From Bolinopsis microptera (taxonomy: Eukaryota; Ctenophora; Tentaculata; Lobata; Bolinopsidae): a stretch of DNA of 64,000 nucleotides. The notes beneath the pieces were generated by a model that saw nothing but the letters and a program-made list of their open reading frames with translations, made no database searches and was not told where the DNA came from. A program made the translations under genes and the position numbers. The stretch is taken from positions 13,806,340 to 13,870,339 of the forward strand of contig NC_087081.1 in the NCBI RefSeq assembly GCF_026151205.1. The letters run 5' to 3'. Each line of letters begins with the position of its first letter. The stretch's first letter is position 1. Shown piece by piece: positions 33,838-64,000 of the stretch.

Positions 33838-34274
33838 TTACCCTCTAGTTCCATGGCCAAATAATACAGTAAAATAATTCGGGCAAATTTTATTTGTGAA
33901 AAAAATTTATTCGGGTGAAAGGTTCCATGCCCAAATAATTTGCGTGCGGAAATCGATACGCATATCGGTTGCGTCGGGTGAGATCGAGACTGCGACCACC
34001 CAAGTTTAAATTAGGATCAAAATTACGTAAACATTACGTAAACTAGTGTAACAACCAATGTGCAGAAGCAAAATAGTGTCCTTCATTTCTATTGTGTTTC
34101 CGTCAGTTTCTGTTCGTTTTATATATTTTCTATAAACTTTTTTGTGTAAATTTAAGAAAATAGGGTTGACAATGACATATCTAAATTAAGTTGTTTGAAC
34201 TTAAATTGTCAAGAATGACTCCTTTGCAATTAACATGTTTGACCAACTTAAATTAATATAAAGATATAAGGTCC

Positions 34275-36523
34275 TACTCAGTCCTCCTCCTCAATCCTCA
34301 TCAGTCCTCTTTAGTCATCCTCCTCTTCAGTCCTCCTCAGTCCTCCTCAGTCATCCTCCTCAGTCCTTCTCAGTCCTCCTCCTCACTCCTCATCCTCCTC
34401 CTCAGTCCTCCTCCTCCTCCTCAGTCCTCCTCCTCAGTCCTCATCCTCCTCCTCAATCTTCCTCCTCAGTCCTCCTCAGTCCTCCTCAATCCTCCTCCTC
34501 CTCCTCAGTCCTCCTCAGTCCTCCTCAGTCCTCCTCAATCCTCCTCAGTCCTCCTCAATCCTCCTCCTCAGTCCTCCTCAGTCCTCCTCAATCCTCCTCC
34601 TCCTCCTCAGTCCTCCTCAGTCCTCCTCAGTCCTCCTCAGTCCTCCTCAATCCTCCTCCTCAGTCCTCATCCTCCTCCTCAATCTTCCTCCTCAGTCCTC
34701 CTCAGTCCTCCTCAATCCTCCTCAGTCCTCCTCAGTCCTCCTCAATCCTCCTCAGTCCTCCTCAATCCTCCTCAATCCTCCTCCTCAGTCCTCCTCAGTC
34801 CTCCTAAGTCCTCTTTAGTCACCCTCCTCTTCAGTCCTCCTCAGTCCTCCTCAGTCATCCTCCTCAGTCCTTCTCAGTCCTCCTCCTCACTCCTCATCCT
34901 CCTCCTCAGTCCTCATCCTCCTCCTCAGTCCTCATCCTCCTCCTCAATCTTCCTCCTCAGTCCTCCTCAGTCCTCCTCAATCATCCTCCTCCTCCTCAGT
35001 CCTCCTCAGTCCTCCTCAATCCTCCTCAGTCCTCCTCAATCCTCCTCAATCCTCCTCCTCAGTCCTCCTCAGTCCTCCTCAATCCTCCTCCTCCTCCTCA
35101 GTCCTCCTCAGTCCTCCTCAATCCTTCTCCTCAGTCCTCCTCAGTCCCCTCAATCCTCCTCCTCAGTCCTCCTCAATCCTCCTCCTCCTCCTCAGTCTTC
35201 CTCCTCCTCCTCCTCCTCATGAGTCCTCCTCCTCATCCTCATGAGGCCTCGTCCTCCTCGTCCTCCTCCTCATCCTCATGAGGCCTCATCCTCCTCGTCC
35301 TCCTCCTCATCCTCATGAGGCCTCATCCTCCTCGTCCTCCTCAGTCCTCCTTCTCCTCAGTCCTCCTCAGTCCTCCCCAGTCCTCCTCCTCAGTCCTCAT
35401 CCTCCTCCTCAGTCCTCCTCAATCCTCCTCAGTCCTCCTCAATCCTCCTCAGTCCTCCTCAATCCTCCTCCTCCTCCTCAGTCCTCCTCCTCCTTCTCAG
35501 TCCTCCTCAGTCCTCCTTCTCCTCAGTCCTCCTCAGTCCTCCTCCTCCTCCTCCTCAATCCTCCTCAGTCCAATTCAGTCATCCTCCTCCTCAGTCCTCC
35601 TCAATCTTCCTCAGTCATCCTCCTCAGCCCTCCTCATCAATCCTCCTCAGTCTTCCTCAGTCATCCTCCTCCTCAGTCCTCTTCCTCCTGAGTCCTCCTC
35701 CTCCTCCTGGGTCCCCCTCCTCCTCCTCCTCCTGAATCCTCCTCCTCCCCCTCCTCTTGGGTCGTCCTCCTGAGTCCTCCTCCTCTTCCTGGGTCCCCCT
35801 CCTCCTCCTCCTCCTCCCCTCTTCTTGGGTCGTCCTCCTGAGTCCTCCTCCTTCTCCTCCTCATCCTCCTGAGTCCTCCTCCTCCACAGTCCTCTTCAGT
35901 CCTCCTCAGTCCTCCTCCTCCTCAGTCCTTCTCAGTCCTCCTCAGTCATCCTCCTCAGTTCTCCTCAGTCCTCCTCAGTCCTCCTCCTCCTCAGTCCTTC
36001 TCAGTCCTCCTCATTCATCCTCCTCAGTCCAATTCAGTCATCCTCCTCCTCAGTCCTCCTCAATCCTCCTCAGTCATCCTCCTCAGCACTCCTCATCAAT
36101 CCTCCTCAGTCTTCCTCAGTCATCCTCCTCCTCAGTCCTCTTCCTCCTGGGTCCCCCTCCTCCTCCTCCTCCTCCTGAGTCCTCCTCCTCCCCCTCCTCT
36201 TGGGTCGTCCTCCTGAGTCCTCCTCCTTCTCCTCCTCATCCTCCTGAGTCCTCCTCCTCCACAGTCCTCCTCAGTCCTCCTCCTCCTCAGTCCTTCTCAG
36301 TCCTCCTCAGTCATCCTCCTCAGTTCTCCTCTGTCCTTCTCAGTCCTCCTCAGTCATCCTCCTCAGTTCTTCTCAGTCCTCCTCCTCAGTCCTCCTCAAT
36401 CCTCCTCCTCCTCCTCAGTCCTCCACCTCCCCCTCAGTTCTTCTCCTCATCAGTCCTCTTCCTCCTCCGTCCTTCTCAGCCCTTCTCAGTCCTCCTGCTC
36501 CTCCTCCTCCTCCTCCTCCTCCT
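34275..36523 (+). repeat. 2.2-kb pyrimidine-rich CCTCCTCAGT/CCTCCTCAAT tract
   Basis: Units of TCCTCCTCAGT, TCCTCCTCAAT, (CCT)n and CCTCATCCTC follow each other for over 2.2 kb with almost no purine except in the AGT/AAT spacers. Higher-order copies are visible: a block with CTCTTGGGTCGTCCTCCTGA occurs near 35755, 35820 and 36200. Open frames across it on both strands (for example 35757-36563) are low-complexity artefacts. It lies within the Harbinger element, upstream of its transposase gene. Confidence 0.95.
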
Positions 36524-36981
36524 CATCAGTTTACACAACTTATTGTTACTAAAACGTTTTTAAACGCATTTGAGTCTATAACATATTGACATGTTACTGT
36601 TGCTGACTAAAAATGTGCTCAAGCATTTTTGTATTTAACAGAGTTTTACTCTCCAGTACTATGGAAAAGTTGTTACACGATAAAGTGATTTTCATCCCTT
36701 TTTATGTTATTAAGAAATGTGTTGACTATTCTTTGAACCGAGGATTGAAAGTTTGAGAAAGGACCATGGTCATTAACCGTGCTACCCATTTCTGCAGATA
36801 GCCTGTTACAAATTGTGGAGACAGTTTAAATCAAAAGTTACAATTTTTGTCCGTTTTTGTCCGTCCCTATTTTCTGAAAACGGACAAAATTGCACGGACA
36901 AAAACAACATGATCCCCCACCCCCCAAGGACTGTAGTAAAGGATTTAGTAAGTATACACTATACACTATACACTATACATC

Positions 36982-38410
36982 ATGGACGTGCAGCGGCACA
37001 GGCGAATGAAGATAATTTTGGTTTCGATAGTTGTCTTGATAACAGCTTGTGCTCAAGTTACCCACAACGATGTAACTCGGATGTACCGGCTCCCACCACG
37101 GTACGTATGTATATATATATATATATTTAATTGATATGCATTTATAAACCAAGCAGGTGGAATAAAAGAAAAAATGTTAAATTTTCATTGATGATATCTA
37201 AAGGTACTGAACTCAGAACTGGTTGTGGTTGTTTGAGTTTCATTTTTTTTTCAGACATTGGGTACGACCCTTTCTAAGATCAAGGGATCGCAATGGGGCT
37301 ATGAACAATCAGTTTAAGGTCTTGTTCAGGCAGTCGGAGGCGGAATTCAAGTCGTTTATGAGGCTGACGAAGCGTCAGTTTCATGAAGTACTGGTACTTA
37401 TTGAGGATGACATCGCCAAAGACGGTTCAAATTCAAGAAATGGAATATCTGCAAAGGAGCAGCTGATGGTAACTTTGCGTTATTTAGCTGGGGGAGAAAG
37501 CCATAAGACACTATCGCTTTATTTTATGATTGGCCGACCAACAATTTCAAAATTCATACCGAGAGTTTTGAAGGCCATCATAACACACTTGGGACCTATT
37601 CACGCAAAGGTACCATCATCAGAAAATGAATGGCTTGAAGTGGAACGACGATTTGCAAATCGTTGGGATTATGTAAACACAATCGGAGCTATTGACGGTA
37701 AGCACGTAGTGATGATCAAGATAAGAAGTTCCGGATCCACATATTACAATTATAAACAGTCATTTTCAATAAATTTGATGGCTATAGTCGGGGCTGACTA
37801 TAAATTTATAGCGTATGACATCGGATCTCCAGGGAGAATGGCAGATTCGGGGATTTGGAACCGGTCGCAAATGCGACCATTATTTAATCCTTCTGCGAAT
37901 AGCAACCCACTAAAAATACCTCCCGCACATGTCCTAGTAAGTCCAATGAATAATGTAGATTCTAGACAGAAGCCTGTTAATTATCATTTGATCGGCGACG
38001 ATGGCTTTGGATTGGGTCTACATCTTATGAAGCCTTATGCTGGAAGAAACCTCCTTGTCGAGATGGAAATTTTTAACTATCGTTTGTCCAGAGCGAGGCA
38101 AGTTGTTGAGGTCGCTTTCGGCATTTTGGCCAATCGCTTCCGTGTTATGATTAACCGCGTTTACTGTGCACCAAGTAATGCCAGGTTGATCGTAGAAGCT
38201 GCAGTTATCCTGCATAACTATTTGATCAACCAGAAGCCAATCCCAGAGAAAGAGGCTGATGTAGCTCAACAGATTTGGTCTCAGAAACTGGAAAAGATCA
38301 AACACAGGAACTATCAGGGTACTCTAGATTCTGCGACAAGTATGAGAGACTATTTACGAGAATATTTCTTGTCTGAGTATCCAATAGACAGTCAATACGA
38401 CGTAATATAA
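36982..38410 (+). CDS. PIF/Harbinger DDE transposase (two exons)
   Basis: Exon 1 runs 36982-37100 (ATG 36982) and exon 2 37255-38410 (stop TAA 38408-38410). The donor is GTACGT and the acceptor follows a T-run (TTTTTTTTCAG). The junction restores the family's start of domain RHWVRPFLRSRDRNGAMNNQ. Order of motifs: N-terminal helical region with ISAKEQLMVTLRYLAGGESH, then the DDE_4-type catalytic core. That core has GAIDGKHV (first D), YDIGSPGRMADSGIW (second D), GDDGFGLGLHLMKPY, and RARQVVEVAFGILANRFRVM (catalytic E). The protein is about 424 residues, a normal length for this family. It cuts and joins the element's inverted ends in the nucleus. The partner gene downstream is in the usual arrangement. 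Confidence 0.93.
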
Positions 38411-46247: not shown

Positions 46248-48949
46248 GCTAAGACAAACTTTATTAGTCAGGTTAAAAATGGTGACCATCACTACCATCA
46301 ACTAAATATGGCACCGAAGAATAATACAGTTTAACTCCAATGCTGCAAGACGGCCAAGACCCAGGATCATCGATGACCTCAAAGCCTATGATAGGGAGAT
46401 GTTATCATGGTGTAGTATGTTGATGACAGCTCTGCTCGAGTTGTGGCAGATTCTCTGAACTTCTCAAATCAGGAAATCTGTACAAATATATAGCTATTCT
46501 TTCATTGCGGACTCAGAAAGAACAGACAATTTTTTGTACACCTTGGGGTTAATATCCAAACATCAGGTGAGCATAATCTTGGAAATTTTGTTGTCTCTAA
46601 AGAATAGGGATGAGTGGTAGGGTGAGAATCCCTGCCACGTTTTTGGTCTGTTTCGCCGGGGCTCATGTCTTTCCTTGAGGGAGCATTAGTGTCTACAGAA
46701 AAACTGACAAATCCTAGCGAAGTCCAATCCGAACCACATCTTCCATCAGAGGTGGTGCTGGGTCAGCTGGTTACTGAACGGATTGGCCTGGAGAATGGCA
46801 TAGTCCTGTTACTCTCAAGTTAACCATAGAGGGGGTCAGGCGCTGTTCGCTCACCGCTGGTTCTTGGAGCCAACACCCTCAGCCCCACAGAAGTGGGAGC
46901 ACTGTCAGTGGTGGCTCACCCAGATAACGGACAGTGTCTCTCTTTCTTTCTTCTTGGACTTGCATTGTTGCTGGCGAGTCAGCCAGTAGCAATGCAGCAT
47001 CTCACTCACTCAATCACCTCAGCAGTTCGGTCCCTTTTTTCATTGCATTACTTTCGCTCCAGGATAGCACTGTCCTGTCATCCCCAAGCTAACTATCGAG
47101 GTAGGGGGTCGGATGCCATCCGTCTCACCTGGTTCTTGACCTGTCGCCCTCAGACCTACAGAGGTGGGGTGCACTGTCGGTGGCCTGTCACCCAGGTTGA
47201 CGGTGGTATCTCTCCCTCTGCCTCCCTTTGGACATGCATTGTTGCTGGTGAGTCAGCTGGCAGCAGTGTATCATACTATTGCGTGTTTACTAATCCCCTC
47301 TTAGCTTTCAGGCTAAACTAAAATTATAAACTAACAGAAGCAGGATAGAAGCAAGAAATCATCAGTAGCCCCTCAACTTAACGAAGACTGATATCTACCG
47401 CTCTGGTACAAGCAACTCTGATAAAGTACGACACTGCTGCTTCTCTGGGAAGTCAGCACCAACAGAAATGGGGACACTCTCTGATATGAGTGCTGGAATT
47501 CTCAGCCGTTTTACTCTACAGGCTAAGTTTCTTGTTATAATTCTATTGCTCTGTTCTTTCATTTGTATTCTGTCTCACTCTACTGCATATTGTAGATCGT
47601 CAGCATTCATAGAACCAGGGTCTCAGTTACAGTCCTTCTGTTAGTTGACTAGACACACTTTTTGCATCATCTTTCGGTTTTTGACGGCGTTTAGAAAACT
47701 TCTTGTTTTCTCGATCGTTACTTGCCTCCGTATTGGCTGCTAAACTAAAATTATAAACTAACATTCGGTCCACCCCCTTGTGTGTATACTAACACCCCTA
47801 GATTCCCAGGAACAGGCATAAATATCTACGGAAATCAAAGCCAAACAGACAGACAGCTACTCAGCCACAATGCAGGACAACAGATACTGCTCTGAACCAA
47901 GGATAAGTCTGATGGATACAGTCTCCCTAGACATTCGCACAGATTACAAGAATGCCAACATCAGACATCACGTCTCTTATTAAGACAAAGCTCAACTCTC
48001 TATCCAAGTTCCTGAAATCAGAGTTGTCTAACTGAGATTCGCAGTCAGACATGCAGTATACCCCCCTCGACCAACCCAGCTACTAATCCGTGTCTACAGG
48101 CAAGAAATTGATCTCGTCATTTGTAATATAACATGAAATATTATATACCTATTGAAATTCTCATCCTCCACATCATACAAAAGAGAACGGCCCATGGCCA
48201 TACACCACATATCAAAGAGAAAGGCCTCCGGCCAGACATATCAGACCTAACATGATCTATTTTCCTTAAAAGCCCATGTTTATATAAAGTTTTAGCGTGT
48301 AAAATTGATTCACTTTACTTACTTGTTTATAAATTTTACCTCGAACCATGCTTTCACAGAATTAAAATATTACCACACGACAGGGCGACAGTTTTCCAAA
48401 ACTGGTTACATTCTTCCCTCAAGGCGCAGCTCCTACACCTGGTAAATTCCACTCTAATAGCACAACCTCTCAAACAGACTCACCGAAGTAATCTTCAGCC
48501 ATCAAATGCGAAGGGACTATAGCACCGCTTTCAAACCTGATCATGTTACAAGGCATGACTTTTCTGCCACTACTTCATCATTATAGATTAGTGATTACTT
48601 AGTGTGTAGATGAAACGATATGAGTGTAGCACACACTGGCTTATCAATGAATGATTGATTCATCCTATCAGCGTTATCTTGATTCGAATTTAGATTGCTA
48701 TATTAAATTTTTCCTATATTCTACGTAACGCGCGAACGCCATTTGAGCACAGTATGTGCTAATGATCTCGCTGTCGATCCTTTAATACGTTTTGCGCGCT
48801 GCGCTAGCTACTCTGGTAGCGCGCATGGCGGGTAATTTTATTATCTATTGTTTCAACTTTTTATTCAGTTTTATTCATTTAAACGATGTTAATCATTTGA
48901 AACGACTTTACTAAAATTTGTCAACGAAGAAGAACTCTAAATTGTTACC
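46248..48949. other. No supported gene; contains an internal duplication
   Basis: The 142-codon frame at 46893-47321 lies across a duplicated segment and has no recognisable domain. A 24-base word (GCTAAACTAAAATTATAAAC...) occurs at about 47312 and again at about 47740, bracketing 0.4 kb. CG-rich words (TAGCGCGCATGGCG) are near 48820. The 46248-46300 part may be the 5' leader or upstream intron of the ANKLE1-like gene. Confidence 0.4.
46790..47265. repeat. ~270-bp tandem duplication, diverged
   Basis: 46790-46995 and 47060-47265 share blocks in the same order: CCTGTTACTCTCAAGTTAAC / CCTGTCATCCCCAAGCTAAC, GGGGGTC, CACC-GCTGGTTCTTG / CACC-TGGTTCTTG, GCACTGTC-GTGG, then GCATTGTTGCTGG-GAGTCAGC. 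The copies are clearly diverged, so the duplication is old. Confidence 0.7.
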
Positions 48950-49268
48950 ACAGCAACCATTCAATGTTGCCATAGAAACTACACACTCTTAACATAGCAA
49001 CCACACACGGTTACCGTAGCAACTCCAAATCACTACCTAGCAACTAAACACTGCTACCATAGTAACTACATACTGATACTATAGCAACTACACACTGTTA
49101 CCATAGCAACTACACACTGATACCATAGCAACTACACACTGTTACCATGGCTACTACACACTGTTACCATAGCAACTCACCATAGCAACTACACACTGTT
49201 ACCATAGCAACTACACACTGTTACCATAGCAACTACACACTGTTACCATAGTAACCACACACCGTTAC
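48950..49268. repeat. ~22-bp satellite (TTACCATAGCAACTACACAC)
   Basis: About fourteen units of GTTACCATAGCAACTACACACT occur. Those at 49080-49260 are nearly identical and those at the start more diverged. Confidence 0.92.
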
Positions 49269-49274
49269 CAGGAA

Positions 49275-54101: not shown

Positions 54102-56132
54102 CTAGCCAAAGGGCTCAATATTTAAATCTAAATCTTCAATATTGTCTGGTTTATATCGCAACTTGGGCCCTCTGTCCCCCCTTATCGAAATAACCGTTGT
54201 CTTTAATACCTCAAAGCGCAAGCGCTTTCTAAGATATGTAACTGAGTCTGAATAACGCTGACCCGTTGGAGATTCCATCTTTTGTGCAAGCTTTTTAATC
54301 AAGCGTTGCGCTTCGACTCCCATGCCTCCTGTTGTGGAGAAAACTAAAGGTGTAAAGGTAGCTTTTTCCACTTCTAGGACCCTTGCATTATATGCTCTTT
54401 TCTTCTCAGTCTCGTGAGCCAAATACATCATAGGAATTGGTTTAGCGGCGTTGGTTGGAGCAGGAGCGTGAAACACTCTTACATCAAAAAATGCTCTTTC
54501 CAACGCATTCCAAACTGATCTTGCTGATATATCTAGTCGGGCTTGATCTCCAGTTATTGTACCTCGTGGTAACTGCATGCCGCTGACTGGAAGAAGAGGG
54601 GGCTCTGTCTGAACGTCTTTGCATTTGACTGTCCGCATGATATTAGCTATTGTATCTCGAAGTGAGTTATGCCTCAAGGTCACATAACCCCCAAGTTTAC
54701 ACGTGAGGGCATGGTTTGCGGAGTAGGAATCACCACAAGTACAAAGTTTTGGACAATCTTTCAGCTTCAGGTTATATCTTAAAGCTATAGCATCTGAAAA
54801 CTGTTGCTTATTCAGGAGATAACCATAGCTTTTGAGTGGTAAGGTGGTTAGCCAGGAACTTGCACCCTTCTCTGCTGCTAGCTGTAACATAAGTTTAGAT
54901 GTTTGTGGCAGAGACTCCTGAATTGCCTCCTGTCTTCTGGTGTAATACTCATTGCGATCTTTACTGATGGATGTCTTGATTTCATGGCTTTTATCCTTGT
55001 CTTCAAGATAGTTTACCTCTTGGCTTAGTATAGCCGTTTTTAGCAAAACTGTAGCTTTGACTGAATACAGGAACTCTGAGTTGGCCAGTTCTGTTATTAT
55101 AGGGATACCCAGCCCTCCATACCTTGGTGGTAGAGAAAAGATCTCTCTAAGAGTGTCAGTGCAACTAAATGCTCTATCAAGGATTGCTGGAATGAACTCC
55201 TCTCTGATGGTAAGTTCGAGTGGTTGAAGTCTATCTGCTATCTCAGGTGTAGTCCTACACACATAGTTCCATCTTTTCAAAAGTCCATATACAAATGCAG
55301 AGTATGCAACTTGAGGCTCTCTTGATGCAATTCCTGCTAATTGCTTCACGTCACGACACCATTCCTCCACTTTCTGGTCTATAAAGCTGTGATGCCCTTC
55401 TATTGACCCAATAAAACTGCCTAAATACCCTTTCCCAACCGTTGTGATGTTGACATCAGGAAACATCTCTTTTGCAGCTTGTTCAAAATCAGGCTTCACC
55501 ACTATCCATGTCTTGGCAGGTTTTGGCTGGTATCCAAACCCTGGTCCATTGCGACACAAAGTTTTCCACCATTTTTGCAGCCCAACTAACTTTCCTCCTG
55601 CAGCTGAGTCATCAGCATACCAAATCTGTTTGGTGCCTTCTATGTTGTGTGTAGAGTAGATTAAGGGCATAGTTGCACAAGCATAGAAACCCATGGCAGG
55701 TGGATCTCCTTGAGTAGTGCCAGATTCACTTAAGATCATCTCCTCTCCGCCAGATATAAATAACTCCGCAGGGGATCTGTAGATGTTCATCAGATATGTT
55801 GCAGCCTCTGGGCAAACCACATACATGTTATTAAGTGCTGCTTCTCTGTTCAACAAATTGAAAGCATTCTCAGCATCAACAAAGATCATTGCTTCTGTAT
55901 CAGGGGTTTCAAAGAGCTCTCTGGCTGCATGGACTGCAGCCTCCACTCCTCCTTGAAGGCCCGCACAAACCTGAATAGGTGCTGTTGAGGTAGCAAAATC
56001 TTCTTGCAATGTCATCATAACTGATTTGCCAACAATTCTTCTGATAACCTCACCAATCCCTATAGGGCGCACCCCGGGCTTCTTATCCAGAGGCACCAGC
56101 CTACAAGCAGTGAAGGATTTCAGTAAATCAGG
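54102..56132 (-). CDS. RT + CCHC + restriction-like-endonuclease region (3' part of broken ORF)
   Basis: The frame opens at 56132 after TGA 56135-56133 and ends at 54102. No ATG precedes the conserved start LVPLDKKPGVRPIGIGEV, so it is not an independent gene. Numbered from the valine of that block (56096), the RT motifs are FVDAENAFN (72-80), SGTTQGDP (125-132) and YADD (160-163). A knuckle LCTCGDSYSANHALTC follows. The C-terminus has ARLDISARSVWNALERAFFD then VRVFHAPA, resembling a PD-(D/E)xK endonuclease core as in R2/R4-type elements, and ends VISIRGDRG. The nuclease assignment is inferred from acidic residues and position. Confidence 0.75.
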   Translation of the reverse strand, partial: PDLLKSFTACRLVPLDKKPGVRPIGIGEVIRRIVGKSVMMTLQEDFATSTAPIQVCAGLQGGVEAAVHAARELFETPDTEAMIFVDAENAFNLLNREAALNNMYVVCPEAATYLMNIYRSPAELFISGGEEMILSESGTTQGDPPAMGFYACATMPLIYSTHNIEGTKQIWYADDSAAGGKLVGLQKWWKTLCRNGPGFGYQPKPAKTWIVVKPDFEQAAKEMFPDVNITTVGKGYLGSFIGSIEGHHSFIDQKVEEWCRDVKQLAGIASREPQVAYSAFVYGLLKRWNYVCRTTPEIADRLQPLELTIREEFIPAILDRAFSCTDTLREIFSLPPRYGGLGIPIITELANSEFLYSVKATVLLKTAILSQEVNYLEDKDKSHEIKTSISKDRNEYYTRRQEAIQESLPQTSKLMLQLAAEKGASSWLTTLPLKSYGYLLNKQQFSDAIALRYNLKLKDCPKLCTCGDSYSANHALTCKLGGYVTLRHNSLRDTIANIMRTVKCKDVQTEPPLLPVSGMQLPRGTITGDQARLDISARSVWNALERAFFDVRVFHAPAPTNAAKPIPMMYLAHETEKKRAYNARVLEVEKATFTPLVFSTTGGMGVEAQRLIKKLAQKMESPTGQRYSDSVTYLRKRLRFEVLKTTVISIRGDRGPKLRYKPDNIEDLDLNIEPFG

Positions 56133-57469
56133 TCAACATATCTGACACAAAGGACTCTCACCATGTTTGCAATAGCGCTACAAAGAGCATCTGACTTTTT
56201 CCCGAACTGCTTTGAACACAGAATCCGTTTCCACCCGTCAGAATCCAAGCCTGAAGGCCCTCCAGCACCCTGAACTTGCTTGGCTACATGCCTGATCCTG
56301 TCTCCGTCTATGCTATCAAAAATGACCGGTTCCACATGTCTAAATGGGCCATTAAGGCAACTGCCTTCTGGGGCTGGGGTGGCTTTCGGATGTTTCTCCT
56401 TGAGGACTTTAATAACTTCTGCTGTGGGGTTAAGCGCACATGTTGCTCTCTCTCCTATCCAGCGCATTGCCGCAGATACTTTTCCCTCCATCATCAGTCG
56501 AGTGAACACCTTTTCAATCTGTCCCTTCTCGTACTTCCTTCCTCCAATCCTCCTCTGGATTTCTCTACCTTCTCTCAGGAGTTCAGTCAACTTTCCCTCT
56601 TGCCATAGTTCCATTCTTCGTTTCAAGGCTTTGCTGTGGTCTGCAGTCTTTGATTTCTTGGTTGGCTTCTGAAGCAGCAAGGCCGGCATTATCATTAAGA
56701 GTGTCAAACAAATTCTCTCCATAGCACTGCCTGATCCAAAGTTTTTAACAACCTTGGTCATCTCCTCTATGAACACCTTGCCAATCGCCCCTGAGGGGAG
56801 AATAAATAGATTTCTCTTCCATTGAACAATCTCATCGTAAATTTCCTCACACTTAATCTTCACTTCTTCACCTTTCCATGGACCTAACAAAAGGAGGGGG
56901 GAGATCTGTGAACTCTCGTAGTCAGGAAGTGAGCACTGAATAGCCGGAGCCTCAACCATTACTTCTTGCTCATCAACTTCACTCCTTATCTCTTTAATCG
57001 CTGCCGTGAGTAGGTCGTCTTCTCTTTGGGTTCCTGTAACATCAGGGTCTCCTAGTTCCAGAAGGAACTGAGTTAACTGAGTACTATTTTCAGAAGTTGA
57101 TTGTATATCAACACACTCGTTACAGAACCAACCAGTGGAAGTGTTTATAAGCTGTTCATAGATTAGGCTACTCATGTTAATACAAGTACAGTGGAACCAT
57201 CTTTCGCAACTATTGCAGCAAACTGCCGCATCAAGGTCAGTACACAGAGAGGAACAAACAGGGCAGGTGTCATTGGTCTCTCCGGAGATGTCAGTTGAGG
57301 TCTGGCTGTCAGATGTAACTTCTCTTAGATTATCAGGCTGAAGCAGAATGTCTAATGTACTGTCCGAGCTTGATCCACTTCTGATGTCAATTTCTGGTAC
57401 CAGTGTGCCACCAAAAGGAACCAACTGAATACAGTCTACTTCATTGTTAGATTTAGATCTGGTTTTCAT
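56120..57469 (-). CDS. PHD-finger N-terminal part of the same retrotransposon ORF
   Basis: ATG at 57469 gives MKTRSKSNNEVDCIQLVPFG. The frame is open 10 codons further upstream without a better start. A PHD zinc finger (C4HC3) follows: CPVC, CCNSC, WFHCTC and WFCNEC, a histone-tail-reading fold. After an acidic linker come RMELWQEGKLTELLREGREI and AAMRWIGERATCALNPTAEV, then the pre-RT motif GAGGPSGLDSDGWKRILCS. It stops at TGA 56122-56120 after YVDLIY. The RT frame continues directly in another phase. A single-base loss in the CC run at about 56131 explains the break, so both parts are one ancestral protein. Confidence 0.8.
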   Translation of the reverse strand: MKTRSKSNNEVDCIQLVPFGGTLVPEIDIRSGSSSDSTLDILLQPDNLREVTSDSQTSTDISGETNDTCPVCSSLCTDLDAAVCCNSCERWFHCTCINMSSLIYEQLINTSTGWFCNECVDIQSTSENSTQLTQFLLELGDPDVTGTQREDDLLTAAIKEIRSEVDEQEVMVEAPAIQCSLPDYESSQISPLLLLGPWKGEEVKIKCEEIYDEIVQWKRNLFILPSGAIGKVFIEEMTKVVKNFGSGSAMERICLTLLMIMPALLLQKPTKKSKTADHSKALKRRMELWQEGKLTELLREGREIQRRIGGRKYEKGQIEKVFTRLMMEGKVSAAMRWIGERATCALNPTAEVIKVLKEKHPKATPAPEGSCLNGPFRHVEPVIFDSIDGDRIRHVAKQVQGAGGPSGLDSDGWKRILCSKQFGKKSDALCSAIANMVRVLCVRYVDLIY

Positions 57470-57764
57470 AATTTCCAACCCAAAAACGGGGACCACCACT
57501 GTTTTCCGAGTCGATTACCAGCAGGAGCTGTAGCTTACCGCTGACAGTCCCTACTGGATGCGGGTCTCCTTAACAGTAGTGGATCCGAATTTGGGATCTG
57601 ATGGAGTAATCTCGACACCAGAGGGTTTTACAGAATATTTCGTCAATATTTCAGTTTCATATACTAATTTCTCTTATGACTAGTGCAATTATAAGTCGAC
57701 TTTTGAGGAATAACATTAACAAGTTAATTAGTGGGTCATGATCTGTTTAAATTTCCGTACATTG
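57470..57764. other. Leader of the PHD/RT retrotransposon, boundary unclear
   Basis: Non-coding. From about 57700 the sequence begins to resemble the left flank at 53165 (CTAGTGAGTTGTTAACCTGT), so the element boundary probably lies between 57640 and 57710. Confidence 0.4.
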
Positions 57765-58225: not shown

Positions 58226-59263
58226 TTGACGATGTCAATTCATGGCAGCTCGGCGAGGCATAGTAGCGCATTTTGCAGAACTAGCCACTGTGAGGAGCCT
58301 TATTAAGTGCGCGGCGCGGCACAGTAACGCATCGCGCTACAAAGATTATTTTATATCACGTCTTGACGGATGTTACTCGTCTAAATTTCTTCGAAGTAGC
58401 GCGCGCCGCTTTCTTCTCGAAATGTTGGCCCGATGGCAAGTGCTACGAAGTAGCGCACGCCGGGCCAGATCATTAATACTTTCAACACTACTATATAACA
58501 AATAATTTGAGGATGTACCATGGAAGTCTAGAGTACCCGCAACAAAGAATGCAGCTGTAAACGACTTGGTAATGGGGTGCATGTGAGCTCTTGGGGCCAG
58601 TGGCATCAGAAGACTGGCTATCAGCCTTGGAAATACTTGGAAATAAGATGAGTTTTCTTTAGATTCATGACACATCCGCACTGCATCTCCATCACCATGA
58701 CACAAACATTCTTTCCTCCATTACCCCACCCTTGCCTAGCCCCACCCCTCCCTCCCTCTACCTGTTGTGGGTACTCTGGACTGCATGGACATCCTTGAAT
58801 AGAGGTAATTTTTATAGTAGTGTTGTGGTATTATCTTGAGTACCTTTTATCTATTATCTATATTCTATATCAACAAACTAGTGTAGACGCCCTATCTAGC
58901 CCAACCCTTCCCTTAACCCTCTTCAGCCCCTTTACTCTATACATTGTACTCTTATCCCACGCCCAACCTGCTATAGACATTAAATTATCTCTATCCCTCC
59001 CCTTTGGGACCTTGCAGTCCAACCTGCCCCCGCTCCCCTGCCACAACATCACCACTAAATACCACCATACACTCATTTATTTAGGCTTTGTGCTCTTTGA
59101 AAATTCTCTCTGCTTATTCCTCTTGTTTAATCTATCTTTCCATTTGATATCACTCACTCATTTCAAAACTGTTTTACTCTCATCATCTTATTTTCAGGCT
59201 GTTGGTTGGTTCGATGGTGTCCTGGCCCCAATCTCATCATGTGCTCCCTACCATTCTCTCTTC
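58226..59263. other. Probable 5' leader of the AlkB retrotransposon and CG-rich repeat
   Basis: 58240-58470 has GCGCG-rich words and a second copy of GTTACTCGTCTAAATTTCTT (also at 57926). 58700-59060 is pyrimidine-rich with many CCC runs, consistent with a retrotransposon leader. The frame upstream of ATG 59264 is open from 58820, but its peptide is hydrophobic low-complexity and includes a TTATTTTCAG acceptor-like word. Confidence 0.4.
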
Positions 59264-60139
59264 ATGCAAGACATAACTATTACTGAAGACAACCCTCGGT
59301 CTACTAGATCGAGAAACAACTCCTCTCCTTCTGACAGAAATATCATCGATTTTACGAAACCTATTACCATCACAACCCCTGGACAATACTTGCTCAGTAA
59401 CCCTGACTCTGGTTGTAGTATTAGTCTCTTCCAGGATGTTTTTCCAAGTCAGCTATGTGATCAGTTCGCTTGTGAAATTGAAAACACTGGTGCCCTCAAA
59501 CAGTACACCACAATCCACAAGCAGGCTCAAGTACAGCTCCCACGACTGTCATCTTGGTATGGCCCTGTTGACTACGCATTCTCAGGAATTGTAATGAAAG
59601 CCAACTCTGTGTCAGAATGTCCTCGTCTTATTGCAGCATATCAGCACATGGCGGAAAACATCTTTCAACCCAACAACATCGATTGTTCCTCTGATTGCTT
59701 TTTGATCAACCAGTATAGGACAGGTCGAGATTCTTGTGGCGAACATAGCGATAATGAGCCAGAGGTTGACCTCTCTAAACCTGTTGTTACTCTGTCACTC
59801 GGTCAACAACGCTGTATGCTCATTAGAGAGGCTAAGAACTCTGGAAATGCCATCACAATCAAACTTGACCAAGGCTCAGTTCTCGTTATGCATGGTACTG
59901 ATTTCCAAAAAAAGTACACTCACCAAATACCCAAAGACAATGCAATCACTGCTGCACGCACTTCAGTGAACTATAGGACCTGCAACTCCAGCTTCCTGCG
60001 TACCAGAAACGCTCTATCTACACCTCTTATTGATATGGCCATCACTCCTGTACTCGCGAACCTGTACTCGCGAACTGTACCTGCCCCCAAGACCCCAGGA
60101 GACTCCGCAAGCTCCCAGTCGCTTCAAAACAGACGTTGA
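59264..60139 (+). CDS. AlkB-type Fe(II)/2-oxoglutarate dioxygenase in retrotransposon
   Basis: A 291-residue frame runs from ATG 59264 to TGA 60137-60139. The first ~45 residues are Ser/Arg/Asn-rich. The AlkB core follows: LPRLSSWYGPVDYAFSGIV, DCFLINQYRTGRDSCGEHSD with H161 and D163 as iron ligands, PVVTLSLGQQRCMLIR, GSVLVMHGTDFQKKYTHQIP with H220 as third ligand, and R232/R238 in ARTSVNYR for 2-oxoglutarate. All five key residues of the family are present in the order of ALKBH2/3. Such enzymes remove methyl groups from alkylated bases of DNA or RNA. The frame continues in phase past the TGA into the coiled-coil segment. Since TGA could come from CGA, an original fusion is plausible. Function within the element (protecting its RNA or cDNA) is inference. 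Confidence 0.85.
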   Translation: MQDITITEDNPRSTRSRNNSSPSDRNIIDFTKPITITTPGQYLLSNPDSGCSISLFQDVFPSQLCDQFACEIENTGALKQYTTIHKQAQVQLPRLSSWYGPVDYAFSGIVMKANSVSECPRLIAAYQHMAENIFQPNNIDCSSDCFLINQYRTGRDSCGEHSDNEPEVDLSKPVVTLSLGQQRCMLIREAKNSGNAITIKLDQGSVLVMHGTDFQKKYTHQIPKDNAITAARTSVNYRTCNSSFLRTRNALSTPLIDMAITPVLANLYSRTVPAPKTPGDSASSQSLQNRR

Positions 60140-61099
60140 TCTTCTCTTACACTAACATCACTACAAACCATCATCACTGGAAGCTCCCCAGTCGGATCTC
60201 CTCTGGCCTCAAGCTCTCCCTCCGTGACCAGCAGTAAAACTTCAGTCTCTGATAGTGAGACATTCCCTCTCAGTCTAGAAGCAATGTTAGAAGCCGTTGA
60301 TTCATTAAAAGAAAAAATGGTGAAAAGTGAACTTTCTCGTCATGGTAGCTCAAACTCAGGGTCCCTCATTGACTGTAAGAAACGACTAAAGAAAGCTGTG
60401 AAAGCATGTCACAAACGCCTCAGCTTGCTTCTTCTTGAGCCTCCATCTACCTCAGCTGAGCCTGACTGCGTCACCCACTCCCTCCAAACCATGGAAAACT
60501 CTGTTATTGACCTTCAAGCTAAAATTAGCCTGCAACATACCACCCTGCAAACTCTTGTCTTGTGCTCTGACTACAAATCCAATCAAAAAGGTAGCACCAG
60601 CTCCCCTAATTTGTCTAACGAGCTGAATACTGTGGACAAGAGATTTGAAAAGCTTGAGGAAATCATGAGTAGCATCAACTCAAATCAACAAGACACTGCT
60701 ACCTCCCTTAAAGCCTTTGAAGAAAATATCACTGCTATTAAAAACGAGGTTGAGGTCTCTAAGGCCTGCCTGCAGTCTCTCCAGCTCAATGGCCATAAAA
60801 ATCCCCAAAAGAAAAGGCCCTCGGCCTCGCCTCATCCTGCTCAAAACCAGAACCGTGAAAGCTCAAATAGCACAACTCAGAACCCCCATAGAAAAACCAG
60901 AAAACAGAGAAAAGTGCTCCTCCTTCATGACTCTCAGATGAACGGATTTATAGCCGAGTCTTTCTCTTCTGGGTTCAAGGTTGAAAAAAAGAAAGAATTT
61001 AGCAGCACCTTGGAGGGTAATCATGAACTGAACGATGCAATTACTAACTGTCTCCACAGTGCTGCTGTCAATCAACTCCTCGAGGCGAAACCTGAATAG
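60140..61099 (+). CDS. Coiled-coil / SGNH-like ORF1-type segment
   Basis: This is the same reading phase as the AlkB frame, reopening right after its TGA. No ATG lies near the start, so it is probably the continuation of that protein. After a Ser/Thr-rich linker come heptad-like helices (AMLEAVDSLKEKMVKSELSR, VDKRFEKLEEIMSSINSN, LKAFEENITAIKNEVEVSKA). A basic region PQKKRPSASPHPAQ and RKTRKQRKVLLLHDSQMNGF follow. KVLLLHDS resembles the first strand and serine of SGNH-hydrolase-like domains seen in some LINE ORF1 proteins. The rest of that domain is missing, and the frame ends at 61099 (TAG). Its likely role is RNA-binding/assembly, by analogy with ORF1 proteins. Confidence 0.65.
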   Translation, partial: SSLTLTSLQTIITGSSPVGSPLASSSPSVTSSKTSVSDSETFPLSLEAMLEAVDSLKEKMVKSELSRHGSSNSGSLIDCKKRLKKAVKACHKRLSLLLLEPPSTSAEPDCVTHSLQTMENSVIDLQAKISLQHTTLQTLVLCSDYKSNQKGSTSSPNLSNELNTVDKRFEKLEEIMSSINSNQQDTATSLKAFEENITAIKNEVEVSKACLQSLQLNGHKNPQKKRPSASPHPAQNQNRESSNSTTQNPHRKTRKQRKVLLLHDSQMNGFIAESFSSGFKVEKKKEFSSTLEGNHELNDAITNCLHSAAVNQLLEAKPE

Positions 61100-63950
61100 G
61101 CTAGCAAACCGGCTAGGTAGTAAGCACTGCAACAATATTCTCAGACGTGAATATTACAAGCAGCGCAATAAGCACAGTAATCTTGTTAACAGTAAGAAAT
61201 TATCTTTTCTTAGAAAGTTAAATGAAGCTATTGAAGAGGGTCATATTCTTGACTGGAAAAAATTTAAAAGGCTTAAACAAGAACATGACACTAGCCCCCT
61301 ACTAGACAAATTCGATCTAGCTAGCTTTCATGATTTCTTTGCATCCCTCTATAAGAAACCAGACCAGGAGCCCGATCCCACTCACCACAATAAAGAAATT
61401 TTTAATTAGCACTGTATAGTTTAAGATATTTATAGCTTATTATAACCATTGATACAAAGGCCATAATCTTTCGCAAGCTCTTTAATATCCACCTTGAAGC
61501 CACATTTTATATCCTTGAACCACACAATATAAACCAAAGCATGTTTTAGTGTAGACTTTTTGTCACAACAAGACTGCAACCTATAGTAACAACTATAAAC
61601 AGAACCCCTAATGTCTACTAACAAATTTCTTCTAGTCCTGAAATGAGCCCTGTCTCTAAAAACCTAACTGAACTAGCGTTTCGGTGTGTGCAAAAGCTTT
61701 CAGGCACGCGCATTCCTTGCCCCGTTAGTTACCTGTCCTTCCAAAACCAAACTAGCAGTCAAGGACAAAAAGTCATACACCAAATGGGCATTATATTTTA
61801 TGAATTGTTTTACATCTTTTTATTCTGTAAAATGTGCTAAAATTAAATTTCTTGTTTCATTGAATTTCTTGTTTCATTGACAATCACAATCATTACCCTG
61901 AACCACCAGATCTGGATATCCTAAACAAGCTCATATCTGAACCCGAACTAACTTCTGCAATCAAAAAGCTCAAAAAGGGTAAAAGTTGCTCAAATGACTT
62001 GATCTCAAACGAAATGCTTCAGAGCCTAACTCCGCTTTGTCTCCAAGTCATCCTCAAAATGTTCAACCACTCTCTGGTCTCAGGTTACTATCCATGGCAT
62101 ACCAGTATTATCACTCCTATCTACAAATCAGGCAACCCCTTCAGCCCAGACAATTACAGAGCAATAGCAGTTGGCAGTTGTATGGGTAAGCTGTTCTCTA
62201 GCATTTTACTTGAACGTCTGTTATACTTCAAAAAGCTCTACTGTCCTGATCCAAAAGAACAGCTCGGTTTCTCGAAGGGTGCTCAAACTAATGATCACGT
62301 TTTCACCCTTAAGACAGTCATTGATAAATACACTAAAGTTAAAAAAGCTCGTCTCTATGCATGCTTTGTTGATCTAAGAAAGGCCTTTGACACTGTATGT
62401 AGGGACCTTCTTCTGCACAAAATAACATGCCTTGGAATTACCGGTAACTTCTTTAACTGCTTAAGTGATATGTACAAAAACTCAATTGCTCATATAAAAA
62501 TCTCCAAACTCTTGTCCCCTAAAATTGATATTGGCAAAGGAACGGAGCAAGGACACCCCCTATCACCAGACCTTTTTAATATCTATATTAATAACTTGTC
62601 ATCTCTTCTGAAATCTGTTGGTGATTATCCAGTTCTTGCTGACGTTCTAATATCACATCTGCTCTGGGCTGACGATCTTGTCCTTCTTGCTCTAAGTCCC
62701 AAGGCCTTGCAAGTCAATATCAACATTCTATCTGACTTCTGTAACTCCATGGGCCTTGAAGTAAATATAAAGAAAACTAAGATTGTCATATTCAGCCCTC
62801 CCAAAAAGAAGCAGTCCCATGAAACATTTACATTGGGAGGTCAGCCCATCCAGCACACCGAAAAGTACTGCTATCTTGGCATAATATTCCACAGAAATGG
62901 ATCCTTTACGGCAGCAAATACTGAGCTGAGGGCCAAAGCTCTCCGTGCTCTATATGGCCTTAAAGGCAATATAGTTAAAGATGCCCTCTCTCACCGTGCC
63001 CTTAATATTCTATTTGATTCCTTAATCAAACCAATCCTGCTTTATGGCTGTCAAGTCTTATGCCCCCACTCTAAAACAATGAGATACCTTTCAAAAATAG
63101 ATGACAAAGCCAGCCCCCAGCATACCCTGAAGTACATTGCACAGGACCACTATGAGAAATTCCACCTAAAATTTATCAAGTGGTCTTTGTCCGTCCATTC
63201 AAAAGCATCAAATATAGGTTGCTGGGGCGAAAGTGGGCGCCACCCCCTATTCTTTGAAGCCTGCAAACTTGCAATAGATTACTATAGTCGCCTTGAAAGC
63301 ACCGAAAATGAACTACTTTGTGCTGCATTTCACGAGCAGATCATGCTGGGCCTTCCTTGGTATACCAACATCTCAAAGCTTCTCACCAAATACAACTTCC
63401 CCCACTCATCTTCATCAAAATCTAAGCTCTCCACCCAAATCAGTCATAATATGAGGGAATAATTCGTGAATACCTGGAAATCTGCCAAGGCCTCCTCACC
63501 AAAACTAGAATTCTATAACTTAATTAAACATGATTTTGAACCAGAGGCATACCTACGAATAATCAAAGTACCTGATTTTCGAAAAAGCTTGACAAGGTTT
63601 CGTATCAGCTGCCACAACCTCTACGTTGAAAGGGGCAGATACGAAACCCCTCTTGTACCAAGAGAAGAACGTTGGTGCACTTACTGCTTTTTCAGTAAAG
63701 GGCTCAAACCTATCGAGGACGAAAGCCATGTATTAATTGACTGTTTGCTTTACTCCTCAGTTAGGGAAAAATTCAACTTTTATCCCCAAAACATCACTGA
63801 CCTAGCCGGTCTGCTCTCCAACAAAAATCTAGATCCTACCAAATTTACTGCCACAGCAAGAGCAATCCATTCAATTCTCTCTGTGAACGAACAATATACA
63901 GCCTATTATAAGAGCCCAGATTTCCACTCAAATACTGGCAAGTGCATAAT
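61035..63950 (+). pseudogene. Reverse transcriptase of the AlkB retrotransposon, interrupted
   Basis: Part 1, 61035-61391, holds the pre-RT linker (NILRREYYKQRNKHS, DWKKFKRLKQEHD). The frame resumes in phase after the MITE at 61885 with PEPPDLDILNKLISEPELTS. Core motifs, numbered from 61999: DNYRAIAV (51-58), CFVDLRKAFDT (122-132), GTEQGHPLSPDLFN (181-194), LWADDLVLL (222-230; W replaces the usual Y/F), GLEVNIKKTKIVIF, and YLGIIFHRNGS. TAA at 63460-63462 interrupts, but the same phase continues to about 63950. That tail has RFRISCHNLYVERGRY, WCTYC and ESHVLIDCLLY (CxxC...HxxxxC knuckle). No APE-type endonuclease is visible between the SGNH-like start and the RT. Confidence 0.8.
61386..61890. 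mobile_element. ~0.49-kb MITE inserted in the RT, CACAAT target duplication
   Basis: CACAAT at 61386-61391 and again at 61885-61890 brackets the insert, and removing one copy plus the insert restores the RT frame. The left end AAGAAATTTTTAATTAGCAC is mirrored by the right-end block (inverted AAGAAATTTAATTTTAGCAC). Outside that block the right end has two copies of AATTTCTTGTTTCATTG. No coding capacity was recognised. Confidence 0.7.
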
Positions 63951-63955
63951 CAATG

Positions 63956-64000
63956 AAACAAGAAATTTCAATGAAACAAGAAATTTAATTTTTAGCACAT
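63956..64000. mobile_element. Start of a second copy of the same MITE, cut by the window edge
   Basis: AATGAAACAAGAAATTT occurs twice, followed by AATTTTTAGCACAT. This is the inverted form of 61834-61880. It breaks the C-terminal region of the retrotransposon frame. Confidence 0.65.

What the first reader, a model, noticed from the sequence alone, without database searches (positions are those of the whole stretch)
59264..61099. AlkB demethylase-like enzyme carried by a retrotransposon
The frame upstream of a reverse transcriptase encodes an AlkB-type dioxygenase with the full HxD...H and R...R set (H161, D163, H220, R232, R238). It is followed in the same phase, past one TGA, by coiled-coil and SGNH-like sequence. 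AlkB domains are established in some plant RNA viruses and in cellular ALKBH repair proteins. I do not recall a description in a metazoan non-LTR element. Preserved catalytic residues beside decayed neighbours suggest past selection. It could protect element RNA or cDNA from methylation-based silencing or damage (inference).
Basis: partly seen in the sequence, partly recalled or inferred. Interest (0 to 1): 0.88.

Follow-up and report, generated by a model that had tools for sequence, protein, structure and literature searches.

The report
AlkB demethylase built into LINE retrotransposons
In an animal genome that looks like a comb jelly's, several families of jumping genes carry their own AlkB-type demethylase, kept intact by natural selection, which may clean chemical marks or damage off their RNA before it is copied back into DNA.

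Summary
Window 59264-60136 encodes an AlkB dioxygenase (PF13532, 3e-22) with the full catalytic set. It is the first domain of ORF1 of a 6.75-kb LINE; the window copy is damaged, but open copies in the same 264.65-Mb genome encode AlkB-coil-SGNH esterase (ORF1) and endonuclease-RT (ORF2). All 18 copies whose coil-SGNH match starts at its first residue have AlkB joined or within 57 bp. Three complete ORF2 copies without AlkB are truncated inside ORF1. AlkB-core dN/dS between subfamilies is 0.044-0.065, close to RT (0.024-0.062). About 110 more distant AlkB matches exist (a capped list); of ten examined, not chosen at random, nine are ORF1s of divergent LINEs with AlkB and SGNH, one a host ALKBH3-like gene. 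Two types share about 97% of ORF2 but have diverged ORF1s, both keeping AlkB. Likely role (inferred): an ORF1p-borne enzyme demethylating element RNA before reverse transcription. Nine open-licence literature searches listed no such LINE.

The parts
58473..63950 (+). damaged copy of the AlkB-bearing LINE (family A); 5' end about 58473, 3' end lost to an insertion
   Evidence: blastn against L010/L009
58473..59263 (+). 5' leader of the element (no Met-started ORF assigned)
   Evidence: shared with full-length copies
59264..60136 (+). ORF1 N-terminal part: AlkB-type 2OG-Fe(II) dioxygenase; core about 59432-59992; H161, D163, H220, R232, R238
   Evidence: Pfam PF13532 3.1e-22; ALKBH3 3e-15; residues
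60137..60139 (+). in-frame TGA of this copy; the nine other ORF1 frames read are open here
60140..60915 (+). ORF1 middle: low-complexity linker and coiled-coil-like region
   Evidence: weak coiled-coil Pfam matches; homologous part of ORF1 in other copies
60916..60995 (+). start of the SGNH esterase domain (HDS block), then cut by the internal deletion
   Evidence: alignment with ORF1 of L009-L021; SGNH profile of ten ORF1 types matches PDB 4c1b, 'ORF1-encoded protein', 9.5e-8
60992..61070 (+). junctions of a 1,516-bp and a 62-bp deletion relative to L010
   Evidence: block offsets
61070..61391 (+). ORF2 fragment upstream of RT
   Evidence: 99.7% identical to L010
61392..61879 (.). 488-bp insert with inverted ends (MITE-like), interrupting ORF2
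   Evidence: absent from L010; inverted repeat 61832-61880 with 63950-64000; sequences compared
61880..63950 (+). ORF2 reverse transcriptase and C-terminal region
   Evidence: RVT_1 5.4e-29; 99.86% identical to L010
63951..64000 (.). start of a second, inverted copy of the same insert, continuing past the window

Best explanation
The locus is a damaged copy of a two-ORF LINE whose ORF1 protein is AlkB dioxygenase + coil-like region + SGNH esterase, and whose ORF2 is endonuclease + RT. SHOWN by sequence: the architecture, its conservation in many copies, purifying selection on AlkB, and its recurrence in divergent LINE ORF1s of the same genome. INFERRED: ORF1p coats the element's RNA in the RNP, as known ORF1 proteins do. 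Its AlkB domain then uses Fe(II) and 2-oxoglutarate to remove methyl groups from bases of that RNA (or of the single-stranded cDNA or target) in cis. The most useful effect would be to clear marks or damage that stop or mislead reverse transcriptase, so that more full-length copies are made. Confidence: about 0.97 that AlkB is a true, selected ORF1 domain; about 0.5 for RNA-template demethylation as its main role (the score given below is for the whole statement).
For: AlkB domain and catalytic residues. Five of the 20 fetched family-A loci have both ORF1 (from the AlkB Met) and ORF2 open: L009, L010, L012, L017, L018. 18 of 18 coil-SGNH matches that start at residue 1 have AlkB beside them. 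ORF2s without AlkB: 3 of 3 fetched are truncated inside ORF1. dN/dS of AlkB core 0.044-0.065, against RT 0.024-0.062, EN 0.036-0.046, N-terminal 56 residues 0.093-0.139, SGNH 0.120-0.149, coil 0.205-0.220, linker 0.271-0.394; five pairs per ORF. Retrotransposition marks: shared 5' end, (TTGTATCC)n 3' tail, 6-8-bp flanking repeats in three of seven copies with both ends read, near-identical copies at 99.85-99.87%. Nine of nine further LINE ORF1 types examined have AlkB with an SGNH domain after it, endonuclease follows in all nine and RT is seen in eight. The SGNH profile finds PDB 4c1b, an 'ORF1-encoded protein', at 9.5e-8. For the role: m1A impeded an R2-type RT, and AlkB treatment removed m1A and m3C and raised recovery of most 3' tRNA halves, with modest effect on intact tRNAs (passages of PMC12140624).
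Against: No activity, substrate, expression or RNP data. Nine of ten ORF1 types lack the second Asp of the HxDDE motif of ALKBH2/3 (Asn in seven, family A included; Ser in two), and all ten have RxSxTxR where ALKBH2/3 have RxNLTFR (the window copy itself reads RTSVNYR), so the substrate may not be m1A or m3C. In human L1, m6A helps retrotransposition and the eraser ALKBH5 suppresses it (abstract of PMC7873242). Single-sequence AlphaFold of the window AlkB failed (mean pLDDT 33.6), so the fold rests on sequence homology. One fetched locus (L027) has an AlkB fragment without the element, and L025 an AlkB fragment next to RT without the coil; I read both as decayed copies.
Confidence: 0.5

Rival explanations
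1. Counter-defence: the AlkB domain erases a host methyl mark (m6A on element RNA or 6mA on element DNA) that would otherwise mark the LINE for silencing; the host and the LINEs are in an arms race.
For: Same sequence evidence as the best explanation; the HxDNE/HxDSE active-site variants in nine of ten ORF1 types hint at a substrate other than that of ALKBH2/3; orchid Ty3/gypsy elements carry an AlkB shown in vitro to demethylate m6A RNA (abstract and passages of PMC9289625).
Against: Closest solved relatives are ALKBH3, ALKBH2 and AlkB, not ALKBH5 or FTO. No methylation data for this genome were seen.
Confidence: 0.27
2. The AlkB fold is kept as a nucleic-acid-binding module of ORF1p; catalysis is incidental or lost.
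For: Known ORF1 types carry RNA-binding domains such as RRM and CCHC (sections 7 and 9 of PMC4120745); the Pfam scans of these ORF1s show neither, so something else must bind RNA.
Against: The Fe(II) ligands HxD...H and both Arg of the 2OG site are invariant in all ten ORF1 types, not expected if only binding mattered.
Confidence: 0.18
3. Chance neighbourhood: an ALKBH pseudogene or exon beside an unrelated RT, or a hitch-hiking host fragment of one copy.
For: The window copy is damaged and AlkB is separated from the next frame by a stop.
Against: Same order in many copies, 18 of 18 joined ORF1s, low dN/dS, nine further ORF1 types; the host ALKBH3-like gene is a separate locus, and no RT-like frame is among the frames of 150 aa or more listed in its fetched 5.8 kb (L038).
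Confidence: 0.01
4. Domesticated: the AlkB ORFs are host genes derived from LINEs, and selection acts on the host function.
For: Selection on AlkB is strong.
Against: EN and RT are about equally constrained and the copies move as units with shared ends and tails; dN/dS was measured between element subfamilies, not orthologues.
Confidence: 0.02

Closest known systems
LINE ORF1 type IV (esterase ORF1; CR1 subgroup 7 and L2 subgroup 9 in Metcalfe and Casane 2014; PDB 4c1b, recalled as the zebrafish ZfL2 esterase)
   Same: ORF1 with an SGNH esterase domain ahead of an APE-EN + RT ORF2; the SGNH profile of ten ORF1 types matches 4c1b at 9.5e-8; a microsatellite-like 3' tail (recalled as typical of CR1/L2)
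   Different: An AlkB dioxygenase is fused N-terminal of the esterase; none of the five ORF1 types described in the sections read (PMC4120745) contains AlkB
Orchid (Phalaenopsis) Ty3/gypsy elements with an ALKBH5-like ORF2 (PMC9289625)
   Same: A retrotransposon that encodes an AlkB-family demethylase with the HxD...H site
   Different: LTR retrotransposon of plants, ALKBH5-like, a separate ORF, described as a recent acquisition in one lineage; here non-LTR, ALKBH2/3-like, fused in ORF1, and present in at least ten ORF1 types of one animal genome (abstract and passages seen)
Cellular ALKBH3/ALKBH2 and E. coli AlkB
   Same: Catalytic residues and lid motif (RLSSWYG...YAFS against RLTAWYG...YTYS)
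   Different: HxDDE to HxDNE/HxDSE in nine of ten types and RxNLTFR to RxSxTxR in all ten
AlkB domains of plant RNA viruses (recalled; a reference seen only in the list of PMC9289625)
   Same: A parasite-borne AlkB proposed to protect RNA
   Different: RNA viruses, no reverse transcription; not compared here

Membership tests
Non-LTR retrotransposon (LINE) | Reverse transcriptase | tested here: met
   RVT_1 5.4e-29 in the window, 9.5e-28 in L010 ORF2; PDB R2 and L1 ORF2p chains match
Non-LTR retrotransposon (LINE) | APE-type endonuclease N-terminal of RT in ORF2 | tested here: met
   Exo_endo_phos_2 1.6e-6 in L010, 1.7e-7 in L012; deleted in the window copy
Non-LTR retrotransposon (LINE) | TPRT marks: constant 3' end with tail, frequent 5' truncation, target-site duplication | tested here: met
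   (TTGTATCC)n tails; truncations inside ORF1; flanking repeats of 8, 7 and 6 bp in L009, L012, L016, read by eye; L022 only 4 bp, none clear in L010, L015, L021
Non-LTR retrotransposon (LINE) | No LTRs, no integrase | not tested
   No integrase appeared in the Pfam scans, but no dedicated repeat search of full-length copies was run
LINE ORF1 type IV (esterase) | SGNH esterase domain in ORF1 | tested here: met
   Profile of ten ORF1 types to PDB 4c1b 9.5e-8 and other SGNH hydrolases; GxN and the His column invariant. Single-protein Pfam matches stay below the curated cut-off: PF13472 at 0.001 or better in six of nine further types, none at 0.01 in L032, L035, L036
LINE ORF1 type IV (esterase) | Coiled coil / zipper next to the esterase | tested here: inconclusive
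   Only weak coiled-coil-like Pfam matches
CR1/L2 clade of LINEs | RT phylogeny placing ORF2 in CR1, L2, Daphne or Jockey clades | not testable with these tools
   No reference LINE RT set at hand; the RT tree has only elements of this genome
AlkB family of 2OG-Fe(II) dioxygenases | HxD...H and R......R | tested here: met
   Invariant in ten ORF1 types plus host and human ALKBH3; PF13532 matched by 11 of 11 members of A1
AlkB family of 2OG-Fe(II) dioxygenases | Jelly-roll fold | tested here: inconclusive
   Single-sequence model failed, mean pLDDT 33.6
AlkB family of 2OG-Fe(II) dioxygenases | Demethylase activity | not testable with these tools
   needs an assay
ALKBH3 orthologue | Groups with ALKBH3 to the exclusion of other AlkBs | tested here: inconclusive
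   Family A with ALKBH3 not rejected (p-AU 0.31) and not supported; nine other TE AlkBs form one side of a branch at 98/97
Orchid-type AlkB Ty3/gypsy element | LTR retrotransposon with an ALKBH5-like ORF | tested here: not met
   ORF2 is EN-RT of LINE type; PDB matches of the AlkB are ALKBH3, ALKBH2, AlkB, ALKBH1

The most novel reading that the evidence does not exclude
In this probable ctenophore genome an AlkB-esterase ORF1 is a standing, exchangeable module of a whole radiation of LINEs: deeply different types keep its catalytic site, and elements with nearly the same ORF2 have exchanged ORF1s without losing AlkB. The enzyme is a self-encoded eraser that counters a host nucleic-acid methylation defence, or cleans the RNA template for reverse transcription. 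It would be the first demethylase known to be an integral part of non-LTR retrotransposition.
Probability: 0.4. Interest if true: 0.92.

Novelty: new variant of a known kind. Interest (0 to 1): 0.82.

Why it matters
ORF1 proteins are the least understood half of LINEs. An ORF1 with a demethylase under selection nearly as strong as on the RT says that base modification of the RNA or cDNA limits these elements enough to pay for a dedicated enzyme. That makes an open question testable: do RNA or DNA base modifications act as a barrier, or as a host defence, against non-LTR retrotransposition in early-branching animals? Apparently recent copies with both frames open exist, so expression and enzyme assays are feasible. 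It would also give a new natural AlkB with an unusual active site, already paired with a reverse transcriptase.

Tried and rejected
Chance neighbourhood: rejected. Host-exon origin of this copy: rejected; the host ALKBH3-like gene is L038. Viral or prokaryotic relatives: none found with AlkB or RT in viral contigs, nor with a four-row AlkB alignment in viral and prokaryotic contigs; this says little, as those collections are not animal genomes. Structure: single-sequence AlphaFold failed, so no fold search was run. Single or double capture of AlkB: unresolved. Family A and the other AlkB types also form separate groups in the RT tree, with warnings of long branches; with no outside reference RTs I do not name a LINE clade. 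The AlkB of L037 groups with L030/L033/L034 at only 68/77 while its RT groups with L032/L035 at 99/99; not claimed as an exchange. dS between the distant types is high or not computable, so no dN/dS is claimed there. A genome-wide count of AlkB next to EN in the other types could not be made because the genome search stayed busy.

Literature: ten searches were allowed and used. One search was for the host genome; the nine others bore on AlkB, LINE ORF1s or ctenophore elements, and no listed title or abstract start describes AlkB in a non-LTR element. Some lists were capped (20 of 58, 30 of 83, 12 of 42, 15 of 55, 25 of 90 papers). They cover open-licence PMC only; reviews on AlkB evolution and Repbase Reports may hold mentions that I could not see. 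A ctenophore chromatin paper (PMC12221973) has no occurrence of AlkB, dioxygenase or 6mA in its main text.

Changes made on re-checking: deletion and insertion sizes recomputed from block offsets; literature count nine, not ten; confidence in the whole best statement 0.5 to agree with its own wording, rivals adjusted to match.
Full report
WHAT IS THERE. The window lies at C10:13806340-13870339 of a 264.65-Mb assembly. The frame 59264-60136 is an AlkB-type dioxygenase: PF13532 at 3.1e-22, human ALKBH3 at 3e-15 over residues 40-240, with H161, D163, H220, R232 and R238 in place. After a TGA at 60137 the same phase continues with a linker, a coiled-coil-like stretch and the first block of an SGNH domain. 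An RT lies at 61880-63950.

THE ELEMENT. Twenty loci of 9.9 kb around AlkB matches of the family were fetched, the window copy (L028) included. In L009, L010, L012, L017 and L018 the AlkB Met opens an ORF1 of 730-745 aa whose end overlaps the frame of ORF2 (1191-1192 aa, stop to stop). Pfam finds AlkB in ORF1, and endonuclease and RT in ORF2 (L010, L012). The element is 6.75 kb (L010 1530-8283), with a common 5' end and a (TTGTATCC)n 3' tail. Of seven copies with both ends read, L009, L012 and L016 show flanking repeats of 8, 7 and 6 bp, L022 of 4 bp, and L010, L015 and L021 no clear one (read by eye). L009 and L010 are 99.85% identical, L017 and L018 99.87%, so the family was probably active recently.

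THE WINDOW COPY. Against L010 it has a 1,516-bp and a 62-bp deletion, a net 493-bp insertion at 61392-61879 and a truncation by an inverted second copy of that insert at 63950. It is dead, but young: its four collinear blocks are 97.4-99.9% identical to L010.

IS AlkB A FIXED PART? A search with the coil+SGNH part of ORF1 gave 91 matches (94 of 231 candidates scored). Eighteen family matches start at query residue 1. Beside each lies an AlkB match: 4 bp away in 17, 57 bp away in one. In C8 and C11 the adjoining AlkB piece is only the last quarter; the C11 copy has the rest of AlkB further upstream behind an interruption. An ORF2 search gave 40 matches (39 of 6,197 candidates scored). For twelve copies with the ORF2 start but no AlkB match I requested the upstream DNA and was allowed three. 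All three are truncated within ORF1, at L010 positions 3819, 4132 and 4345. At the nine others one search shows an ORF1 remnant that begins at residue 71-382 of the 450, which fits truncation but was not read directly. Among the 20 fetched loci, L027 has an AlkB fragment with no other part of the element, and L025 an AlkB fragment next to RT without the coil.

SELECTION. Pairwise NG86 dN/dS between subfamilies (five pairs for each ORF): AlkB core 0.065, 0.048, 0.050, 0.044, 0.048; RT 0.062, 0.033, 0.024, 0.036, 0.029; EN 0.045, 0.045, 0.046, 0.044, 0.036; N-terminal 56 residues 0.093-0.139; SGNH 0.120-0.149; coil 0.205-0.220; linker 0.271-0.394; ORF2 middle 0.078-0.154 and C-terminal part 0.075-0.093. 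Caveats: the pairs share branches, and AlkB dS is near 1 in four of the five pairs. The pair L010/L012, with dS 0.29, gives 0.065.

OTHER ORF1 TYPES. One search lists 135 AlkB matches (134 of 562 candidates scored, so a lower bound). By my count about 25 rows belong to this family or a decayed relative, and about 110 have 24-35% identity, about 105 of them in open frames of 400 aa or more. I read ten of these, chosen for variety. Nine (L029-L037) are LINE ORF1s: AlkB at 1.7e-13 to 5.7e-23, then an SGNH domain, then an ORF2. SGNH reaches PF13472 at 0.001 or better, under the curated cut-off, in six of nine; in L032, L035 and L036 it rests on the alignment (GxN and His columns). EN is found by Pfam in eight of eight scanned and by eye in L031. 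RT is found by Pfam in six, by DNA match to L034 in L033, by eye in L031, and not in L036 within the fetched DNA. In these nine, AlkB lies between the N-terminal region and SGNH, whereas family A has AlkB first and the coil between. L031 adds a PHD finger at the N-terminus (4.1e-5, just under cut-off). The tenth, L038, is a host ALKBH3-like gene: PDB ALKBH3 at 2.4e-40. The SGNH profile of ten ORF1 types matches 4c1b, an 'ORF1-encoded protein', at 9.5e-8, fourth among 29 PDB sequences.

ORF1 EXCHANGE. L033 and L034 are about 97% identical over ORF2 but only 54-75% over ORF1 in 200-column windows, with the break just before ORF2. A second copy of each type has the same junction: L042 is 100% identical to L034 across it, L043 96.4% to L033. 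So two mobile types with nearly the same ORF2 use different AlkB-SGNH ORF1s. This matches the modular, reticulate ORF1 evolution described for CR1/L2 (PMC4120745; outline and sections 7 and 9 read).

ORIGIN. The nine other TE AlkBs form one side of a branch (98/97); family A, host ALKBH3 and human ALKBH2/3 are on the other side, their relation unresolved. All ten ORF1 types share RxSxTxR where ALKBH2/3 have RxNLTFR (the window copy itself has RTSVNYR); nine of ten have HxDNE or HxDSE instead of HxDDE. This may point to one origin or to convergence on a new substrate.

HOST. Thirteen large contigs hold 258.07 Mb, 97.5% of the 264.65 Mb (contig lengths). The ctenophore Bolinopsis microptera assembly has 13 chromosome-scale scaffolds with 97.23% of bases (passages of PMC10232365) and is given as 265 Mb in 346 scaffolds (table excerpt of PMC11797021). 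The contig count differs (232 against 346). I infer a lobate ctenophore, probably this species; no sequence marker was tested.

MECHANISM. AlkB enzymes remove methyl groups by oxidation (established). An R2-type, non-LTR RT is impeded by m1A, and AlkB treatment helped cDNA recovery of most 3' tRNA halves, with modest changes for intact tRNAs (passages of PMC12140624). An ORF1p-borne AlkB would act on the RNA held in the RNP, before and during target-primed reverse transcription. Steps shown: sequence, architecture, selection, recurrence. Steps inferred: expression, RNA binding, activity, substrate, benefit. The altered pocket leaves m6A or another base open. Orchid Ty3/gypsy elements offer a precedent for element-borne RNA demethylation (PMC9289625, abstract and passages), while in human L1 the eraser ALKBH5 is inhibitory (abstract of PMC7873242).

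VERDICT. I file it as a new variant of LINE (an esterase-type ORF1 with a fused AlkB), with a function that is plausible but unproven.

Noticed in passing
window 61392-61879 and 63951 onwards (also L028 6991 to about 7500): Two inverted copies of a roughly 480-530-bp element with ends like AAGAAATTTAATTTTTAGCAC, carrying duplicated 17-18-bp ends; one lies inside the RT ORF, the other cuts off its 3' end. Looks like a MITE.
   Followed up: partly
window 54102-57514 (-): Two overlapping frames: a PHD finger protein (PF00628 7.2e-6) followed by a very divergent RT (RVT_1 0.0034) of another retroelement; its RT has no blastp match at 1e-3 to the AlkB LINEs compared.
   Followed up: partly
window 26379-29342 (-): 988-aa open endonuclease-RT frame (RVT_1 3.3e-33, Exo_endo_phos 1e-8) of a different LINE; no AlkB match near it in the window.
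   Followed up: partly
window 37211-38407 (+): 399-aa DDE_Tnp_4 transposase frame (1.4e-23), Harbinger-like by recall.
   Followed up: no
window 34272-36525: 2.2-kb strongly C-rich, strand-skewed array (TCCTCCTCAG-like units; GC skew about -0.7).
   Followed up: no
window 48943-49270: Tandem array of a 22-bp unit TGTTACCATAGCAACTACACAC.
   Followed up: no
L033 and L034, junctions at L033:2321 and L034:2126 (in the orientation of the element): ORF1 exchange between LINE subfamilies: about 97% identical ORF2 with ORF1s only 54-75% identical at DNA level, each junction seen in a second copy.
   Followed up: yes
G000 matches at 27-30% identity (for example C4:13070285, C11:19748635): SGNH-like sequences in very long open frames (up to 2,331 aa) of unknown nature; whether they are LINE ORF1s without AlkB was not checked.
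   Followed up: no
L038 (C2:9635500-9641300): Host ALKBH3-like gene with its AlkB domain in a single 489-aa open frame and a long Gly/Arg-rich N-terminal part.
   Followed up: partly
C32:30836-33124: A decayed, 36-43% identical relative of the family-A ORF1 (AlkB and coil-SGNH both matched, many stops): apparently an old lineage of the same element.
   Followed up: no
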